From contig NW_012236497.1 in NCBI RefSeq assembly GCF_000787575.1, positions 159,232 through 223,231 of the forward strand: a DNA stretch of 64,000 nt. Reading direction: 5' to 3'. The notes under the pieces are model-generated. The model was given only the letters and a program-made list of their open reading frames with translations, ran no database searches and was not told the DNA's origin. This DNA comes from Acytostelium subglobosum LB1. Its lineage: Eukaryota > Evosea > Eumycetozoa > Acytosteliales > Acytosteliaceae. Positions 18,407 through 64,000 of this stretch are shown piece after piece; within the stretch, counting starts at the first letter, position 1, and each line of letters opens with the position of its first letter. Position numbers and translations under genes: made by a program.

Positions 18407-18482
18407 ACTTATAAACAGTATATATATAAATATTATATCACAGGAGCAAGAGATTGGTTGACTTGGCATGTGGACCAGATGC

Positions 18483-19120
18483 TCAGAGTAATGTGCATGT
18501 TTTCTTATTGCGGCGAATTCTCACTTGACGGACAGCCTCTTCAAGGACGGCCTCGATCGCCTTGCTCGAGAGGTTGGCTGCTTGGAGGTACTTGATGGCT
18601 TTGATCTTCAGTGATTCTTTGTTGATGTAGTCCTCAGTTTCCTGATCGATTGGACGCCTGTCAACATAAAAGGGATGAAAATTTACAATCTCCTTGTATT
18701 GTCGCTCGTCATCAGTCAATCCAACCATCAATCGTGGTGTCGACTTGGATCCTCCATATTTACATAAATGGTAGAAATCCTATTGATGGCGTGAAGTGGA
18801 AGTGAGTCTGTCTGGTCAATATGAGGTTGTCTAGGCTAGGCATTCACGGGCGGGATACTCACCAACCATATTCTTGAAAAAGTATGTAGGTAGAGTGGAC
18901 GTCAACAGAGCAAGTAGATGTCTGTTCCTGGGTAGATGACATCCTTCCATTGCTTGTAGTCGTAATCATCGATGACAGTGGCGTCAACAAAGGTGATTGT
19001 GCATGGGATGTTGTCCACTGTCATCTGGATCTTGCACTCCTCTGCCTTCTCCTGCTTCTTCAAAGGACCGACCAGCCACCCTACGGCTACACACTTTATT
19101 GAGTCAGAAGTGATCTCCAT
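18483..19120 (-). pseudogene. Degenerate Rho/Rac-like GTPase, copy A (in-frame TGA)
   Basis: Two exons, 19120..18863 and 18779..18483, split by an 83-nt intron (GTGAGT/ATAG) at the same place as in copy B. The layout follows Rac: IKCVAVG (beta 1), TVDNIPCTITFVDAT (beta 2-3), YPGTDIYLLC (Rac YPQTDVFLIC), RLMVGLTDDE (Rac IILVGTKLD), AIKYLQAANLS and IEAVLEEAVRQV, then a basic tail ending in CTLL, a CaaX-type box. The catalytic core is gone: the P-loop reads GWLVGPLK with no GK[ST], switch I is largely deleted, DTAGQ reads DATVID, and TKxD reads LTDD. A TGA at 18904..18902 interrupts exon 1 where copy B has TGC (Cys). The frame is otherwise open across both exons. Best read as a broken copy of a nucleotide-blind pseudo-GTPase; UGA readthrough is possible but unproven. 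Confidence 0.72.
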
Positions 19121-19123
19121 CAT

Positions 19124-20192
19124 TGTATTTGTAGATAGCGTTGAGGAGTTTATGAAGTTAGATCAATGTCCAACATTTTGATTGGGATGGATCACTTCAA
19201 ATCAAACTGCGGATTTCTAACTTGGAGCGATCATTGTCAGATTGGTTCTCCAACAAGAGTTGTTTTCTTTTTTCTACACTTCCCAAGTCCGACTCCTCAG
19301 TGTGATCAATATTTGTGTGTCTCTCAGTACAGATAAAGATATGTTTTTGGTATCCCCCATTAACAATTGGGCAACCGATGGCCCATCAGGTTGGGGGATT
19401 GGACCAAAGAACCCTTCATCGGTGTCAAAAAACAATCAAAATCAATCAAAATAATCAAAAACACCCAATGGACAGACACCAAAAAAAAGCATAGACACCT
19501 AGTTTATTGATTCATTCAATACCAACATCAAACATATCATTAACAATAACAACATTGTACTAATACATATACATACATTCATACATATACTCTACCTGTA
19601 CTATATTTAATCTAGATCACGACGGGACCACCCGATCAACCATCCACACACACACACACACAATCAATCAAACAACCACTCACTCAATCACACACACATA
19701 CGCATCCGATCACCACTAAACAGAACAGACATCTTAAGGATCAATCATAAACAGTAGCAACAACCACATCCATAGCCATCAATCAATCATTCTATCAATC
19801 AATTAATCAAACACGTACATTCCAACCTTTAAAGTGATACACATAATCCATCCATCCATCCATAGTTGTTTAAAGGTGGGTAACATATTTGGAAAGCGCA
19901 ACAACGATGTTGGCTGACCATCCAACCATTCATCCAACCATCCACCATCAATCACCATCAATCCAGATGATGAATGGCTATTTCTGATCACTCTACGTAT
20001 CATCTGACTAACATTCATTCATTCAATCATTCATTTATTCAATTAGTTCAATCATACATAATTTCCAATTTTGTTGGAATCAATCAATCAATCAATCATT
20101 TGTACATAGACCTACTTATTATTATTATTATTATTATTTATAAATTGTAACATACTCGCTCAATCACTCTCCAAAGAGATATTTAAAAGAAA
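19124..20192. other. Intergenic spacer with simple repeats
   Basis: About 1.07 kb without a convincing gene. It contains CA runs (about 19645-19660), long TCAA/CCAT tetranucleotide tracts, and an (ATT)n run at about 20117-20139 shortly before the ankyrin-TBC start. The promoter of that gene presumably lies in the last few hundred bases. A 70-codon open frame at 19242-19454 has no recognisable features. Confidence 0.55.
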
Positions 20193-28666: not shown

Positions 28667-29367
28667 GTTATATCTCTTTTATCTATATCTCTATAACATT
28701 CAATCAATCAATCTATCAATCATACATACTACATCAAGTGTGATTGGTATGGTATACACCTGCAATCAATCATCAAAGAGTTAGTACTTAGAGTGGTTGG
28801 TGGTGTTTAATCTATTGACTATGATGTGTTTGTGTGTGTTGCGCTACAAAGGATACAACTATCCAATAACACAACTACATCAACAGTGGAGAGGGATTGT
28901 CAAATGAACCACCATCGAGGGTATTCATTCAGACCCTCACTACCCACCCATTTGGTTAACAGCTAAACAAATAATATCTATCTGTATCTCTCTATAACAT
29001 TGAATCAATCAATCATAATTAAATTATTTGTTTGTTGTCAATTACTTGAGTGATGAACCTTTGACCTCCCTTAAGTCCCCCTAGATGCTTATCCGAATAC
29101 CCTGGAATCGATCTATCTCATGTGCTCTGATGTTGGGCAAGTCAATCAAAACAGAATCTAGACATTGTTCCGACTTGTGAAACGTCATTACAACCAAGTA
29201 GTGAATATCCCTGAAGGATTATGAAGATATCTGCGCAATGCGGAGGTCCTTGAATGAACTGCCTCACTTGGTTCAAAGTCATTTGAAGTTTGGTATCCAG
29301 ACCATGATAAGACTTAGGCTTCACAAAAACAAATTCAAATACAAATATATATACTAATACAAATACA
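28667..29367. other. Intergenic spacer, no gene seen
   Basis: About 700 bp between the alkaline phosphatase start and Rho-like copy B. It contains the alkaline phosphatase promoter (TATCTCTATAACATTCAATC near 28685) and AT-rich sequence with ATACAAATAC repeats just before copy B. The minus-strand open frame at 29142-29702 is antisense to copy B and is not a gene. Confidence 0.55.
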
Positions 29368-30009
29368 ATGGTGATCCCAGCTGACTCGATCAAGTGCGTC
29401 GCCGTGGGGTGTATGCTGGCCCTGAGAAGAAGAAGGAGAATGCAGACGAGTGCAAGATCCAGATGACAGTGGACAACATTCCATGCACAATCACTTTTGT
29501 TGATGCCACTGTAATTGACGAATACAACTACAAGCTTTGGGATGAGGTCATCTACCCAGGAACAGATATCCACTTGGTCTGTTGCAAACCAAACTACCTC
29601 CATACCATACCACGAATGTGGATGGTGAGTATCCCTTGATTGCCTATAGTTGAGAAGGATGTACATAATCATCATATTGACCCCAGACTCACCAAACTCC
29701 ACATCAAAGGATGTCCACCATATCTGTTATCACGGAGGATCCAAGTGGACACCACGATTGATGGTTGGATTGACTGATGACGACCGAGACTATAAGGAGA
29801 TTGCCAAGTTTCTTCGTCCCCATTTAGTCATCAGTCGCCCAATCGATAAGGAAACTGAGGACCTCCTAAACAAGGAATTTCTAAAGATTAAAGCCATAAA
29901 GTACTTCCAAGCAGCCAACCTTTCGAGCAAGGCGATCGAGGCCGTCCTTGAAGAGGCAGTCCGTCAAGTGAGAATTCGCCGCAATAAGATAACATGCACA
30001 TTACTCTGA
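29368..30009 (+). pseudogene. Degenerate Rho/Rac-like GTPase, copy B (1-nt frameshift)
   Basis: Exons 29368..29624 and 29710..30009 with an 85-nt intron (GTGAGT/AAAG). After the splice it reads as a Rho fold: YPGTDIHLVC, then MWMDVHHICYHGG (Rac KWYPEVRHHC), RLMVGLTDDD, AIKYFQAANLS, IEAVLEEAVRQV and terminal CTLL. Next to copy A it lacks one nucleotide between GTGGGGTG and GGCCCTGAG (about 29409-29420), so the frame starting MVIPADSIKCVAVG does not connect to the rest; a second frame opens at about 29394. P-loop lysine/threonine, the switch I threonine, the DTAGQ glutamine and the TKxD box are all absent, as in copy A. Pseudogene, or one missed base in an expressed pseudo-GTPase. It lies directly upstream of copy C in the same orientation. 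Confidence 0.7.
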
Positions 30010-30092
30010 AGATCTGGTCCAACTCAATAAGATAGTTTGGACGTTATTAATTTTGGCTAACAACTTATACAAATACAAATATAATTACAAAT

Positions 30093-30276
30093 ATGGAGAT
30101 CACTTCTGACTCTATCAAGTGTGTAGCCGTCGGGTGGTTGGTTGGCCCTGAGAGAAGGCAGAGGAGTGCAAGATCCAAATGACAGTGGACAACATCCCAT
30201 GTACAATCACATTAGTTGACGCCACTGTCATTGACCTATACAATTACAAGTACTGGGAGGAGGTCATCTACCCATG
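30093..30276 (+). pseudogene. Degenerate Rho/Rac-like GTPase, copy C (5' fragment, 10-nt deletion)
   Basis: Starts MEITSDSIKCVAVGWLVGP, nearly identical to copy A, then loses about 10 nt relative to copy A (around 30151-30158), shifting frame. Homology resumes as CKIQ, MTVDNIPCTITLVDATVID, then ...EEVIYP, and stops dead at about 30276, before the C-terminal half. No second exon follows. A tandem, truncated and frameshifted remnant, 84 bp after copy B. Confidence 0.75.
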
Positions 30277-30449
30277 CAACAGTCACCGACTAATCTCGAA
30301 CCCAACAATACCATCACCATTACAAGATTGTTCTAAGCCATCATTGGTGTCCAACACAAGTTGTGTCTTTCTGATTTTTTTAAAGTCGGTCACGACTTGT
30401 CGTTACTCCATTGTCAACAAGGTGCATACAGATACACAAACAAACAAAC

Positions 30450-59167: not shown

Positions 59168-59911
59168 TTACTTCCTTTGTTTCCTTTTTCCAATGTTTTC
59201 ATTATTTTTGGCCAGCTCTCTCTTTAGTTCTTCAATCTCATCGGTCAATGACTTGATTTCCTCGTCCTTCTTGGTTCTGATCTCCTCTGTTTGATTAATT
59301 GATAAGAATTGGATCGAAGGCACTTCACTTTCTTTTAAATTTACAATCACTGCAAGACAATGCCATTCGTTAATTGATCTGATCCTAGCCTCCATTCCTC
59401 TATTACAAACAATAAGTGTTTTCAATCGAGGCATGCACTCAAAGATGTTCTTGGAGTAGCCAAGAGTTCTCTCTCTAAACTTGACAGCATTTAGATGGTA
59501 ATTGTCAAGATTGATATCAATTGTTTTCAAATGTTTGGCTATTGTTGAACCTTTTATCTTTTCAATAGTGACACTGGGCTTAATTGATGTGGACCCGTTT
59601 GATACTTTAACTAGTTCAACTCGACAATTGAATAGTCCTATTTGTTTGAAAGTACCAACAGACAACTCCTTCAGCTTTCCACTAAACTTGACATTGTTCT
59701 TGATATTCTTACTGATTGTTAAATTACGAGAAAACTTTGAAGGGCGTCCCGATTTGACGCGGTCCTTGAAGTCTCCTCGCTCTCCGTGTCGCTGAATAGT
59801 CCTGCTCACTGTTGATCGGGAAACATCAAACATCTTTGATATTAAATTCTTTGAATATCCTCTCGTCTTGGCTGCAACTATTCTTGCTCTCTCTGCTTCT
59901 GTTAATGACAT
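59168..59911 (-). CDS. Tc1/paired-type helix-turn-helix protein without transposase domain
   Basis: Single exon, 247 residues. The first ~60 residues form a paired/Tc1-transposase-type HTH (LTEAERARIVAAKTRGYSKN...ISKMFDVSRSTVSRTIQRHG) ending in the GRPSK motif that follows these domains in Tc1/mariner transposases. The expected DDE/D catalytic domain is absent. Instead there is a ~130-residue region of unknown fold and a C-terminal Lys/Glu coiled coil (DEEIKSLTDEIEELKREL). Either a domesticated transposase DNA-binding domain or an element-borne regulator. It stands next to the rearranged polymerase element. AT-rich codon use contrasts with XDH. Confidence 0.75.
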   Translation of the reverse strand: MSLTEAERARIVAAKTRGYSKNLISKMFDVSRSTVSRTIQRHGERGDFKDRVKSGRPSKFSRNLTISKNIKNNVKFSGKLKELSVGTFKQIGLFNCRVELVKVSNGSTSIKPSVTIEKIKGSTIAKHLKTIDINLDNYHLNAVKFRERTLGYSKNIFECMPRLKTLIVCNRGMEARIRSINEWHCLAVIVNLKESEVPSIQFLSINQTEEIRTKKDEEIKSLTDEIEELKRELAKNNENIGKRKQRK

Positions 59912-60187
59912 GATTGATAGTTATCTACATAAATAATATTATATCTCTTCCAACTTAATGTTTGATGTTTGAACACATTCATTCATTTCCATTGCATAAA
60001 TAATGGACATGTTCATTACTTCAACTAAAAAACTTTTTGTTTGATTGGGATAAATTAAATCCTTTTTTGGAAAGATACTTATAAATGGAAATGTAGAAAT
60101 AAAAGGTTACTACTATATTTGGAAGTGAACCAGAACATAGTCCCAAATTGGTATGAGATAACACAATAGTACCTGTTCGAGGAGGGG

Positions 60188-60775
60188 GTGTCCATATTTA
60201 TAACTATGGCTGACAACGTTGTATTTCCAACTGCCCAAGAACTCGCTGACAACTATGAGGTGATTCTAGATTGGGTCCCTGACCGTGCTAGAGGGCCCAA
60301 CCCAGTCAGGCCAACATGGATCGTTGACACAAGAAACGGTTCTGTGATTCGTTATCGTTCTCTCAATGGCGGATCAGGCAACCAATTCAATGGCACACGC
60401 CAACCAGGAGCGCAAGGAACCAACTCACCGACCTACAATCCGACGTACTTCAGAGCCTACTCCAATGCGCAACACCAACACCAGAATCACAACTTGCTCG
60501 CAAACTTGGTCAATGCACAGGCAGTTGTCCTCCCACCACCCCAGGCAGTCCCTGTCCCAGTCCAAGGTCAAGAACTCGCTCTTGCCGAGGCTCCCGTAGC
60601 CCAAGGTCAAGAACTCGCTCTTGACAATGACGTCGACGTTCTTGGTGCAATGCTAGAGAGGTTCTTGGTTCTGAAGCCGACCACTGTTCTGGATGCCAAG
60701 ATCATTGTGGCCACCGAGAAGCTCAGATCTTTGATGGTTGAGAGACTCAACATCGATGGAGCAAACATGCACTAG
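60188..60775 (+). CDS. Orphan protein with a duplicated Gln-Gly-Gln-Glu-Leu-Ala-Leu motif
   Basis: Single exon, 195 residues (an internal ATG gives MADNVVFPTAQELADNYEV and may be the true start). No known domain recognised. Visible traits: an aromatic, basic N-terminal third (WVPDRARGPNPVRPTW), a Gln/His/Asn-rich middle (NAQHQHQNHN), a near-perfect repeat QGQELAL separated by 10 residues, and a C-terminal amphipathic segment (LGAMLERFLVLKP; ATEKLRSLMVERLN). It lies at the left edge of the polymerase element and may be its cargo or a structural/nucleoprotein-like product; that is conjecture. Confidence 0.6.
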   Translation: MSIFITMADNVVFPTAQELADNYEVILDWVPDRARGPNPVRPTWIVDTRNGSVIRYRSLNGGSGNQFNGTRQPGAQGTNSPTYNPTYFRAYSNAQHQHQNHNLLANLVNAQAVVLPPPQAVPVPVQGQELALAEAPVAQGQELALDNDVDVLGAMLERFLVLKPTTVLDAKIIVATEKLRSLMVERLNIDGANMH

Positions 60776-60936
60776 TTCTGCGTCGCCATCTCTTGTGCCG
60801 TCCCAAGACCTCAACCTTGCCAAGTCCATCCACCACAGGTCCCCATTACCCAGTGCTCAGCCCCTCGTGCTCCAGCAGCCTCTTTTCCTGATCCACAGAC
60901 ATTGCCATTAAACATCATTCTTTGTCTCTCCAATGA

Positions 60937-61209
60937 TCAATGCATCCTCCTCTCTTGCTTCCTCATCAAGTGTCGCGAGATCAACTTGCCGCAGACAGCG
61001 CACGGTATCCTCTCTGTGTTGTAGGCCTTGATCTCCTCTTTGTACTCCTCGTAGTAGCGCTGCATGTACGACTTGTTGATGTTGCTGCCGCTCCTGTCGA
61101 TGGTAGTAGCTGCCGATGAAGGCGTCTTCATTTCTGCGTCCATAATGATGGAAGTAGAGATTATATTAACAGCCTTCTGTTTGCCATATTCCAATGGCGA
61201 ACGATCCAA
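60937..61209 (-). CDS. Small C2H2-like zinc-finger protein of the polymerase element
   Basis: Open frame of 90 codons; the likelier start is the internal ATG at about 61143 (MDAEMKTPSSAATT). C-terminal motif RIPCAVCGKLISRHLMRKQE...H has the CxxC and His spacing of a single zinc finger, preceded by a YMQRYYEEYKEEIKAYN helix. It follows the polymerase C-terminal fragment on the same strand. The role (DNA binding for element replication?) is inferred only from motif and position. Confidence 0.55.
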   Translation of the reverse strand: MDRSPLEYGKQKAVNIISTSIIMDAEMKTPSSAATTIDRSGSNINKSYMQRYYEEYKEEIKAYNTERIPCAVCGKLISRHLMRKQERRMH

Positions 61210-61483
61210 CTGGCTTGGTCATGTTCTTGACGATTGCGTCGGGACAGTAGCCCTCGTATCGCAGGTCGCCACACTCGGTGCCCAACTTGGGGTAGTCGAG
61301 CGATTTCTTGCCAGTCTTGACTGTCCATGGTTTGGTCGAGACGAATCCATCAGTGTGAACGCGCTTGATGCAGTCAATGTCGTCCTTTATTATCGTTCCA
61401 ATCATCTTGCGACCACGAGAGATGATGAATGGCATGATCCGAGCGAATGGCGTATCGAACATGTCGGCGGTGATCAACGTCAA
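61166..61483 (-). pseudogene. Type-B DNA polymerase (organellar/viral type), C-terminal fragment
   Basis: 105 codons in frame on the minus strand with ADMFDTPFARIMPFIISRGR (thumb-side helix typical after the palm), VHTDGFVSTK (motif C position) and a LGDLRYEG-like ECGDLRYEG. It reads as the C-terminal end of a family-B, protein-primed-type DNA polymerase (Pfam DNA_pol_B_2 style). It is directly adjacent, back to back, to the central part of the same polymerase on the opposite strand, so the gene is broken. No intact polymerase can be read. Confidence 0.65.
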
Positions 61484-62500
61484 AGGTGATCACTGCTATG
61501 CATCCACCTCGAGGGCAACCAGAGAGGTCAACCTAATACTAACAAATGGACACTACAAACTAGACAAGGAAGGTACCTATGCAGGCAAGGGCATCAGATA
61601 CACTCGACACAACGAGAGGGACGTCTACATCAAGCCAATCGTTTTCAAGTACCTCAAGGGCGAACAGGTCCAGCTCTATGATGACGGCGAGTACATGACC
61701 ATCAGCCTGGAACATTTTATCAACAAGAAGAGACGCAAGTACCAAGACAAGTGCGAGTACATCCGCATCCTCTCAGGAATGACCCTGGAGGAGACATTGG
61801 ACTCGTTCAAGGCCGACGCCGACGCGCTCAAGGAAGGTACTAACGGTATCATCGACATGTACACAACAGGACAGAACATCAACAAGGCAGCGATCAAACT
61901 GTTTATATCATACAACAAGACAGTCAAGCCAGAGCCAATCGATCAGAAGGAGGGCGAGTGGATATCCAAGTCAACCTTTGGCGCATTGATGTTTTCCATC
62001 CAGCATACAGGAGGTCTCTACATGTATGACGTCTGCAAGATGTATGGTGCGATCATGAAGAGCGGCGGCTTCATGATCCCAATCAAGTGTGGCGAGTTCC
62101 AACAACTGACCGACGAAGAGCTGAGCGCAATGAAATCAATACCATTCGGTATCTATCGCGCAACGATCAACGGCAAGCATGGAGCATTCAAGATTAACAA
62201 GAAGGATTACTACACTCACTACGACCTAATCTTTGCTAAGGAGCTAGGACTGACATTCAACTTGAAGACCGGCAACAAGGCCAATGCATTGTTATACGAT
62301 AGCACATGCAGGATCAATGGCTCCATTCTTTTTGGCAAGTACATGGATCAGGTGCTCGCCTGGATCAAGGCAGGAGTCCCACGATCAAAGGAACTCTATC
62401 AACGACTCTGGGGCGCTCTTTGGCAAGCCATCCCGCCTCAAGTTCTTCCTCGAACTCAATGTCGATCAGAAGGTCTCGATCAAGCGGATCCCATAACTCG
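61467..62500 (+). pseudogene. Type-B DNA polymerase, inverted central fragment (exonuclease/palm)
   Basis: Plus-strand frame from about 61467 to 62410, continuing in a shifted frame to about 62494. It contains TSRATREVNLILTNGHYKL, ISKSTFGALMFSIQ and the motif A region GGLYMYDVCKMYGAIM, then KELYQRLWGAL near the motif B position. The frame changes at about 62410, marking a 1- or 2-nt indel. The flanking N- and C-terminal pieces of the same polymerase are on the minus strand, so this ~1-kb segment is inverted relative to them. Inactive as it stands. Identification rests on motif order; the exact subfamily is uncertain. Confidence 0.65.
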
Positions 62501-62515
62501 AGGAGAGACTCAACA

Positions 62516-62920
62516 TCAAAAGTGCTCTGTCACCTGCTCTGGGTATGCGTCGTGGAGGCAGTAGTAGAGGCAGTGATTCCATTTGCCGTCGCAGCCGCCT
62601 GCCTTGCCCTTTGCTTGATGTACGTAGATGTAGAACGATTTGAATGTGTCGGGCTCTGGGATTGGAGCGCCATCATACTCATGAGGATCAAACATGATCA
62701 TCGGCTCGCCTACCTTGGTGAATGTGCCTGATCGATATTGATGGTTGCCGTAGTCGAGCACGACCTCTATTCTTGCGTTGGCGCCGTAGCGTTGGAGCGT
62801 GTTGCTGTCTCGCTGAGCGATTCGTTCGATGTCTGCTCTGGTGTAGTTGCCTGTGAGCTTGATCTCGGTCACACCCGTCTTCTTCAGTCTGCCGCCAATG
62901 TCTCTTGTTGATCTACTCAT
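62516..62920 (-). pseudogene. Type-B DNA polymerase element, N-terminal fragment
   Basis: Minus-strand frame of ~135 codons from ATG at 62920 (MSRSTRDIGGRLKKTGVTEI) to a stop right at the inversion boundary. It has GEPMIMFDPHEYDGAPIPEP and a GGCDGKWNHCLYYCLHDAY segment, the type of N-terminal block seen upstream of the exonuclease domain in polymerases of linear plasmids and viruses. It ends abruptly where the plus-strand central fragment ends, as expected for one breakpoint. A pseudogene piece, though it could still make a short peptide. Confidence 0.6.
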
Positions 62921-62963
62921 TCTATATATTAACACTGAGATGTTAATTTATATCACTTTGAAC

Positions 62964-63134
62964 CTATTTGTTGGCAATCAACTGTTTGTGGATGTAGCCT
63001 TGCTTGTGTCGATTGAGATTGGTACGACCTACCTCGAAGCCGCATTCACATCGTACCTTTTGCTTGATGTATGCTTTGTGACGCTCTCTGAACTCCGAGT
63101 TCTCGTCCCAATAGTACTCTTTGAATAATGACAT
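62964..63134 (-). CDS. Small C2H2-like zinc-finger protein (56 residues)
   Basis: ATG at 63134..63132 to TAG at 62964. MSLFKEYYWDENSEFRERHK forms a charged helix, then VRCECGFEVGRTNLNRHKQG ending YIHKQ gives a C-x-C...H...H finger resembling small zinc-finger ORFs of mobile elements. It overlaps no other gene, lies just before the polymerase N-terminal fragment on the same strand, and has an AT-rich upstream region shared with the divergent SAM-domain gene. Confidence 0.6.
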   Translation of the reverse strand: MSLFKEYYWDENSEFRERHKAYIKQKVRCECGFEVGRTNLNRHKQGYIHKQLIANK

Positions 63135-63335
63135 GTTATATCTGTTAGAGATAAATTGTTTAATTTAATTTATTTGTTTGTGAGTTTCCTAAATGGGCGA
63201 ACAGATCACCCTTCACCTCAAGGCACAACTTTGATTCTCACTTCTTTCATTATTCACACAACATCAACAAATACAACAACAATTACAACAATCCACTGGC
63301 CCATAGTTATCATCCATCATTGACAACTCTACATC
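63135..63335. promoter_or_regulatory. Divergent spacer between zinc-finger ORF and SAM gene
   Basis: About 200 bp with TTTAATTTAATTTATTTG near 63157-63175 and CAACAACAAATACAACAACAA before the SAM gene start; both start regions should be here. Confidence 0.45.
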
Positions 63336-64000
63336 ATGAATATCAACGATTACAAGAACTGGTCCAAAGATGAACTTCTCCAATGGTTCACTGAGCAAAC
63401 CAAAGAGGACGTGAAGGTTCAAGCGAAGATACTCCACCAGCAAGACATCAAAGGAGCTGATCTTCCTCTCACCAGCGCCAACTTGAAGGAAGTTGGCTGT
63501 ACTCTTGGCCAGGCCAATGCTGTACTCCGAGTTCTTGAGCAACTCCCCCTTGTCCCAGCTGGTATGTACAAACAACATCGGCGCAATGTCTTCATTCAAT
63601 ACTAACATACACACTCAAGCCCCTGCTGCCCCTATAGGATCACAAGGAGGCCAAGCTCGTAAGTACAAATGAGAGTGAGTGATGTGTTTGCTTACTATGC
63701 TAACTTGTCACTTTTATATTAGACATACCATTCGCCCGACAACTCAAACCGAGTGTCCTATCAGAGCAGTCCGATGAAGGCATCACTATTGGATCACGCA
63801 ATACACTCCCGAGACATAACACAGTGAAGAAGCTGTACGATTATGTTTCGAAACATCACTTGGTCCTCCTACGTGCCCCACCTTTCTCTGGAAAGACATC
63901 AATCACTCAGTTGCTGGAGCAGTTCATCATTGACAATCATGGCGATACATATGTCCGCAGATATTCATTTGTTTGGAGTCAGAAATCAAATGAGGATTAA
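63336..64000 (+). CDS. SAM-domain protein with P-loop motif
   Basis: Exons 63336..63561, 63620..63658 and 63723..64000; 180 residues with a TAA that coincides with the last base of the window, so a further downstream structure cannot be excluded. Residues ~1-72 are a sterile alpha motif-like domain (MNINDYKNWSKDELLQWFTE; ADLPLTSANLKEVGCTLGQA). After a Pro/Gly linker comes a short basic region, then LVLLRAPPFSGKTSITQLLE, a clean P-loop (GKTS), and FIIDNH. The pattern recalls NTPase modules of repeat-rich host/mobile families (Crinkler-like) but that is a weak resemblance. It stands beside the polymerase element and may be part of an expanded accessory family. Confidence 0.65.

What the first reader, a model, noticed from the sequence alone, without database searches (positions are those of the whole stretch)
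60937..62935. DNA polymerase gene broken by an internal inversion
The N-terminal (62920..62516) and C-terminal (61483..61166) parts of a type-B polymerase are on the minus strand, while the central ~1-kb part lies between them on the plus strand in the opposite orientation. Breakpoints fall near 61485 and 62510. TGATCA occurs on both sides of the left junction. A simple inversion explains the order. It could be a fossil of a virus-like or linear-plasmid-like element in an amoeba genome, or an assembly mis-join.
Basis: partly seen in the sequence, partly recalled or inferred. Interest (0 to 1): 0.75.

Follow-up and report, generated by a model that had tools for sequence, protein, structure and literature searches.

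The report
Scrambled dead Polinton polymerase gene
Near the end of one assembled piece of a social-amoeba genome lies a dead copy of a virus-like element (a Polinton) whose DNA-polymerase gene was cut into pieces and rejoined with two neighbouring pieces flipped; this is a mostly ordinary relic, although smaller flips turn up in a few other copies too.

Summary
Window 60937-63190 is a decayed copy of a repeated family-B polymerase gene in which the middle lies on the strand opposite both ends. It is not a simple inversion. Colinear copies read A-x-B-C-D. In the window, B (61473-62419) and C (62418-62521) are each flipped in place with their order kept, and a 179-bp block x is missing. The breakpoints are 61467/61473, 62418-62419 and 62519-62521. 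The parent element is best read as a Polinton: a sister copy on the same contig carries polymerase, Ulp1-type protease and an rve-like integrase (just under its cut-off). Polintons have been reported in Acytostelium subglobosum, the probable host. The copy is a mosaic: A and B are 99.6-99.7% like the C53 copy, C and D only 89-92%. The junctions show 2-3 bp of shared sequence and one 5-nt insert, as end joining of broken DNA would leave. Three other copies carry a flipped piece of 59-247 bp, two of them far from contig ends, which argues against a pure contig-end artefact. That cannot be excluded, because the junctions lie 1.5-2.5 kb from the contig end in repeat sequence. The gene is dead: its catalytic motifs are split between strands.

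The parts
60206..60936 (+). Segment with a 201-aa ORF (ATG at 60206, stop ends at 60775); with A and B it forms the tract nearly identical to the C53 copy (from 60209 on). Outside the canonical element homology
   Evidence: among the matches listed only C53 (besides the window itself) covers this segment
60937..61467 (-). Block A: end of the polymerase gene (FDTPFARIM, motif-C-like VHTDGF at 61343-61363) and a small zinc-finger-like ORF downstream
   Evidence: 99.6% to C53 with gaps not counted (98.3% counted), 89-92% to the seven other copies of the matrix that hold it, down to 76% in divergent copies
61468..61472 (.). 5-nt insert CGGTG at the A/B junction, in place of 179 bp (block x) present in C53; GGTGATCA starts at 61469 and again at 61485
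61473..62419 (+). Block B flipped in place: centre of the polymerase gene, motif-A-like LYMYDVCKMY (62016-62045) and motif-B-like LYQRLWGAL (62394-62420, at the junction)
   Evidence: 3 differences in 947 bp from C53, opposite orientation to A and D
62418..62521 (+). Block C flipped in place: 104 bp that lie between D and B in colinear copies; overlaps B by 2 bp and D by 3 bp
   Evidence: 11 differences in 104 bp from C53
62519..62947 (-). Block D: start of the polymerase gene (MSRSTRDIGG at 62891-62920); the frame runs into a stop at the C/D junction
   Evidence: 91.8-93.9% to the nine copies of the matrix (less in divergent copies)
62964..63164 (-). Small zinc-finger-like ORF beside the polymerase start, shared by the element copies
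   Evidence: block D2: 92-97% in closer copies, 66-78% in four divergent ones
63165..64000 (+). Start of a divergently read gene with introns that neighbours the polymerase in 21 of 32 stretches; conserved intron block 63554-63688; runs off the contig end

Best explanation
This is a dead, truncated Polinton copy. First, homologous exchange between Polinton copies made a mosaic gene, with D and most of C from one lineage and B and A from the C53 lineage. Then the DNA broke at about four points within about 1.2 kb (D/C, C/B, B/x, x/A) and was rejoined by end joining. Fragments C and B were each ligated back in their old places but turned round, and the 179-bp fragment x was lost. Shown: the block order, orientation, loss, mosaic identities and junction letters in this assembly. 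Inferred: that this is the true chromosome, that the breaks belong to one event, and that end joining sealed them. The result encodes no polymerase, because the motif-A/B region and the motif-C region lie on opposite strands.
For: Colinear order of A, x, B, C, D in the copies that hold these blocks, apart from the flips named in the report. Of the 136 matches listed (40 of 68 candidates scored), none but the window itself crosses any of the three junctions by more than about 7 bp. Neighbouring blocks abut at D/C and C/B, so they come from one contiguous gene. Junctions carry 3-bp and 2-bp overlaps and a 5-nt insert with a nearby GGTGATCA; joins this short are not what overlap-based assembly usually makes (general knowledge). 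Mosaic: window versus C53 is A 99.6, B 99.7, C 89.1, D 91.8%, while C53 versus C33 is B 98.8, C 100, D 99.5%. Three other stretches hold a flipped piece of 59 bp or more at 92-93% identity; two of these (C53:195030-195276, C51:128483-128541) lie more than 120 kb from their contig ends. Polinton parentage.
Against: The junctions lie 1.5-2.5 kb from the end of contig C21, in a stretch made of repeats, in an assembly that used about 3-kb plasmid clones, Illumina extension and manual walking (if the host is A. subglobosum). One of the three other flips (C45, 130 bp) is about 3.9 kb from its contig end. No reads were available. Two retained pieces put back in order and both turned is one of eight possible outcomes, so nothing marks it as favoured. 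The lineage switch lies within about 27 bp of the C/B break, a coincidence under two separate events.
Confidence: 0.57

Rival explanations
1. Assembly or cloning artefact: reads or clone fragments of several Polinton copies were joined wrongly at the end of contig C21; the real locus is colinear or ends before 61467.
For: The locus lies near the contig end in repeat sequence. A (with the 201-aa segment) and B are 98.7% and 99.7% like one copy, C53; 63165-63690 is 96% like C28, and 63554-63998 is 98% like C46 and 97% like C16, as a chimera would be. Assembly method.
Against: Joins with 0-3 bp overlap and no run of N at the junctions. The blocks abut at shared break points rather than random ones. 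The window keeps letters that C53 lacks (the 201-aa ORF's start, 3 bases at 61348) and lacks 4 that C53 has (at 61121), so it is not a plain re-use of C53 reads. Comparable flips exist in mid-contig copies.
Confidence: 0.28
2. Replication error: while a Polinton copied itself, or a broken fork was repaired, the polymerase jumped between strands and between two copies, writing B and C backwards.
For: Mosaic of two lineages together with strand switching and short shared sequence at the jumps; other copies also have flipped pieces.
Against: Exact re-use of the D/C and C/B points on both sides is expected for cut fragments but is a coincidence for jumps. No listed match shares these junctions, so nothing shows that the product was ever replicated.
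Confidence: 0.12
3. A single simple inversion of the middle of the gene.
For: The middle does lie on the other strand.
Against: Block order is A-B-C-D, where one inversion gives A-C-B-D; 179 bp are missing.
Confidence: 0.02
4. A programmed invertible switch (site-specific recombination) in the element.
For: Flips occur in several copies.
Against: The flips have different ends in different copies; bases are lost beside the flip in the window and in C45; I saw no inverted repeat in the junction letters printed, without a dedicated search.
Confidence: 0.01

Closest known systems
Polintons (Mavericks) of Acytostelium subglobosum (PMC7805220, one passage seen; 'Acysu' in the polymerase tree legend of PMC4642659, one passage and section 7)
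   Same: Integrated element with family-B polymerase, Ulp1-type protease and rve-like integrase in the C21:77-91 kb sister copy and its family; likely the same host
   Different: The window copy holds only the polymerase region, scrambled; I could not compare sequences with those papers' elements
Local shattering and rejoining of DNA by end joining (chromoanagenesis-like micro-rearrangements; recalled, no call)
   Same: Adjacent fragments turned and one lost, short shared sequence at joins
   Different: About 1.2 kb only; seen in one assembly, mechanism inferred

Membership tests
Polinton/Maverick | Protein-primed type family-B DNA polymerase (PF03175) | tested here: met
   Met for the family: 4 of 11 members match PF03175 at E 0.01 or better, best 8.7e-8; five places in the genome, three of them marked over the cut-off, 0 of 14 control genomes. 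Against: the window's own pieces and the full-length C21 and C53 copies give no match; the window belongs by homology. A profile found no polymerase among PDB sequences
Polinton/Maverick | Retroviral-type (rve) integrase in the element | tested here: inconclusive
   Sister copy on C21 (about 90.1-90.8 kb): PF00665 E 1.8e-7, 31.8 bits, just under the cut-off 32.6. Not searched for beside the window copy
Polinton/Maverick | Ulp1/adenovirus-type cysteine protease | tested here: met
   Sister copy on C21: PF02902 41.6 bits against cut-off 20.7; not part of the window copy
Polinton/Maverick | Packaging ATPase and capsid proteins | tested here: inconclusive
   Sister copy has a P-loop ORF (by eye) with only weak AAA/HerA-like matches (E 0.033 and 0.036) and a 465-aa ORF of capsid size with no Pfam match
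Polinton/Maverick | Long terminal inverted repeats | tested here: inconclusive
   None found in C21:73000-94000; what looks by eye like retroelement sequence lies beyond the integrase ORF and an N run begins at 93886
Simple inversion | Inverted segment with reversed block order and two breakpoints | tested here: not met
   Three junctions, order kept, 179 bp lost

The most novel reading that the evidence does not exclude
Polinton copies in this genome acquire in-place flips repeatedly through strand and template switching during their own protein-primed replication, so the window records a replication by-product of an element that was active and co-replicating with another copy.
Probability: 0.1. 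Interest if true: 0.5.

Novelty: new member of a known kind. Interest (0 to 1): 0.22.

Why it matters
It corrects a 'simple inversion' to a multi-break local scramble of a mosaic Polinton copy. It also shows that flipped pieces occur in several Polinton copies of this genome, so assemblies and gene models in these regions need care. Polintons were already reported for this host, if the host is A. subglobosum.

Tried and rejected
Rejected: single inversion (wrong block order); programmed switch (different ends in different copies); plain re-use of C53 reads (the window differs by insertions and deletions and holds sequence that C53 lacks); direct repeat of C behind B (no convincing similarity between x and C). 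Led nowhere: relatives in phage records (none at E 1); IMG/VR (14 stretches matched a pattern, none confirmed); PHROGs (only weak matches, E 0.054 or worse); solved structures by single sequence and by profile (only weak non-polymerase matches); terminal inverted repeats; literature on rearranged Polintons (10 of 45 papers listed, titles and starts of abstracts only, no paper) and on Crinkler-type genes in Polintons or dictyostelids (listings only). Left out of the flip count: C48:503811-504048 (fits the neighbouring copy on that contig) and C53:1438402-1438430 (29 bp, another gene's intron block). The C47:443805-443847 piece (43 bp, 79%) and the C51:1178059-1178120 pieces (38 and 27 bp) I call only possible flips.

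Full report
What was checked. The window is C21:159232-223231 of a 30.73-Mb genome in 56 contigs, so the finding sits at the very end of contig C21 (223,231 bp). Genome size and base composition (window G+C 0.37-0.55 in 2-kb steps) fit the published A. subglobosum genome (30.9 Mbp, 55.0% A+T; passages of PMC4334915).

The observation. Searching window 60100-63200 in its own genome gave 136 matches, with 40 of 68 candidates scored: this is a repeat family. In the best-matching copy, C53:1430347-1433592, the gene is colinear on one strand with a 641-aa open frame; in the copy at C21:79502-81457 the frame is 651 aa. I name the blocks along the contig A, x, B, C, D, where D is the gene's start and A its end. 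The window has A (60937-61467), a 5-nt insert, B (61473-62419), C (62418-62521) and D (62519-). A and D keep their orientation, while B and C are each turned round in place. The 179 bp of x are missing.

Junction letters. A/B: 61467|CGGTG|61473. B/C: 2 bp shared (62418-62419). C/D: 3 bp shared (62519-62521). GGTGATCA starts at 61469 and at 61485; the first copy straddles the junction, so the insert may be templated by the second. With only four inserted bases matching, this is suggestive at most. D and C abut, and C and B abut, with no more than about 3 bp unaccounted for, so they come from one contiguous gene rather than from unrelated fragments.

Mosaic. Against C53 the window is 99.6% (A, gaps not counted), 99.7% (B), 89.1% (C) and 91.8% (D). 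C53 and C33 are 98.8, 100 and 99.5% alike in B, C and D (matrix of the window and nine copies). So the window joins A and B of the C53 lineage to C and D of another. In A, however, C33 is only 91.1% like C53, so the lineages are mosaics themselves. The last C53 difference in C is at 62494. In the seven copies printed, the base at 62505 agrees with L027 (C53) and L028 (C45) but not with the other five. This hints, on one base, that the exchange lies inside C and not at the break. Beyond D, 63165-63690 is 96% like C28, and 63554-63998 is 98% like C46 and 97% like C16.

Is it a polymerase, and what element? The window pieces alone match no polymerase family in Pfam, nor do the full-length C21 and C53 copies. 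Of 11 relatives, 4 match DNA_pol_B_2 (best E 8.7e-8), and five genome places match it, three marked over the cut-off, with 0 of 14 control genomes. Motif-A-like, motif-B-like and motif-C-like stretches (names recalled) lie at 62016-62045 (+), 62394-62420 (+) and 61343-61363 (-). The sister copy on C21 at about 77-91 kb also has an Ulp1 protease (41.6 bits), a P-loop ORF, a 465-aa ORF of capsid size and an rve-like integrase (31.8 bits, just below the cut-off of 32.6). I file the family as a Polinton on polymerase plus protease plus near-threshold integrase. Capsid, ATPase and terminal repeats are inconclusive. Polintons of A. subglobosum are in print (PMC7805220, one passage; PMC4642659, one passage and section 7).

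Are flips found elsewhere? I compared 37 stretches (window included) with the colinear C21 copy. Pieces of 25 bp or more in the minority orientation occurred in 8 of 37. I dropped two as belonging to a neighbouring copy or another gene. Of the remaining 6, four have a piece of at least 59 bp: the window; C45:885218-885342 (130 bp, 92%, with 66 reference bases missing beside it); C53:195030-195276 (247 bp, 93%); and C51:128483-128541 (59 bp, 93%). The last two lie more than 120 kb from a contig end; C45 (about 3.9 kb) and the window lie near one. Two (C47, C51:1178059-1178120) are only possible flips. The stretches were chosen because they match the window, differ in length and do not cover every copy, so this is not a rate for the genome.

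Mechanism. The best-supported reading is breakage of a mosaic copy at about four nearby points, with rejoining by end joining, two fragments turned and one lost. Strand-switching replication is a weaker alternative. A clone or assembly chimera remains possible, because no reads could be examined and the assembly used small-insert clones and contig extension. The copy is dead: D's frame stops at the C/D junction, B runs out of the gene's frame into C (translations compared by eye), and the motifs lie on opposite strands.

Value. A relic of a known kind of element in a host where such elements were already reported. The multi-break structure and recurrent flips are of modest interest. The neighbouring gene with variable exons around a conserved intron (see noticed items) looks more interesting than the inversion.

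Noticed in passing
window 63165-64000; C21:77600-79096; C53:1433527-1435600 and other copies: In 21 of 32 Polinton stretches a gene read away from the polymerase has its conserved intron block 229-488 bp from the matched zinc-finger/polymerase-start block (most of the other 11 were held for 1.1 kb or less on that side; C45 has the block but a flipped zinc-finger piece). The first exon, read as the longest open frame, differs strongly between copies (SAM-like, ubiquitin-like by eye, others), while the next intron is nearly identical (core 30 or more of 35 letters in 20 of 21 sequences read). Downstream, only 9 of 210 pairs of these sequences share a DNA match over 80 bp. It looks like a cargo gene whose modules are exchanged at a conserved intron, resembling the modular plan of Crinkler-type genes (recalled, not tested).
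   Followed up: partly
C21:77640-78821 and C39:645407-646588: The cargo gene's downstream exon region is 99.7-100% identical between two Polinton copies whose polymerase genes are about 89% alike, as if the exon had been swapped recently.
   Followed up: partly
window 59727-60196, ORF 59171-59920 (-): About 470 bp, 99% identical to C10 and two places on C52 and 83-84% to ten more, with a 38-bp inverted match at C52:502919-502956; probably the end of a DNA transposon whose helix-turn-helix ORF starts inside it.
   Followed up: no
C53:1430346/1430347: In the C53 copy the protease side of the Polinton is fused to the 201-aa ORF segment without its start codon, while the window keeps the start: another truncation junction.
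   Followed up: no
block A in L043 (C55), C47:501674-501926, C53:195030-195276: In these divergent copies the gene's C-terminal block stays 90-93% alike while the centre is about 69-72% alike, as if the end of the gene were homogenised between subfamilies; two others show it less (A 83% and 76%, B 68%).
   Followed up: no
window 18471-19133 and 29358-30282: Inverted repeat pair of about 0.7 kb at 81-83% identity with a nested direct repeat.
   Followed up: no
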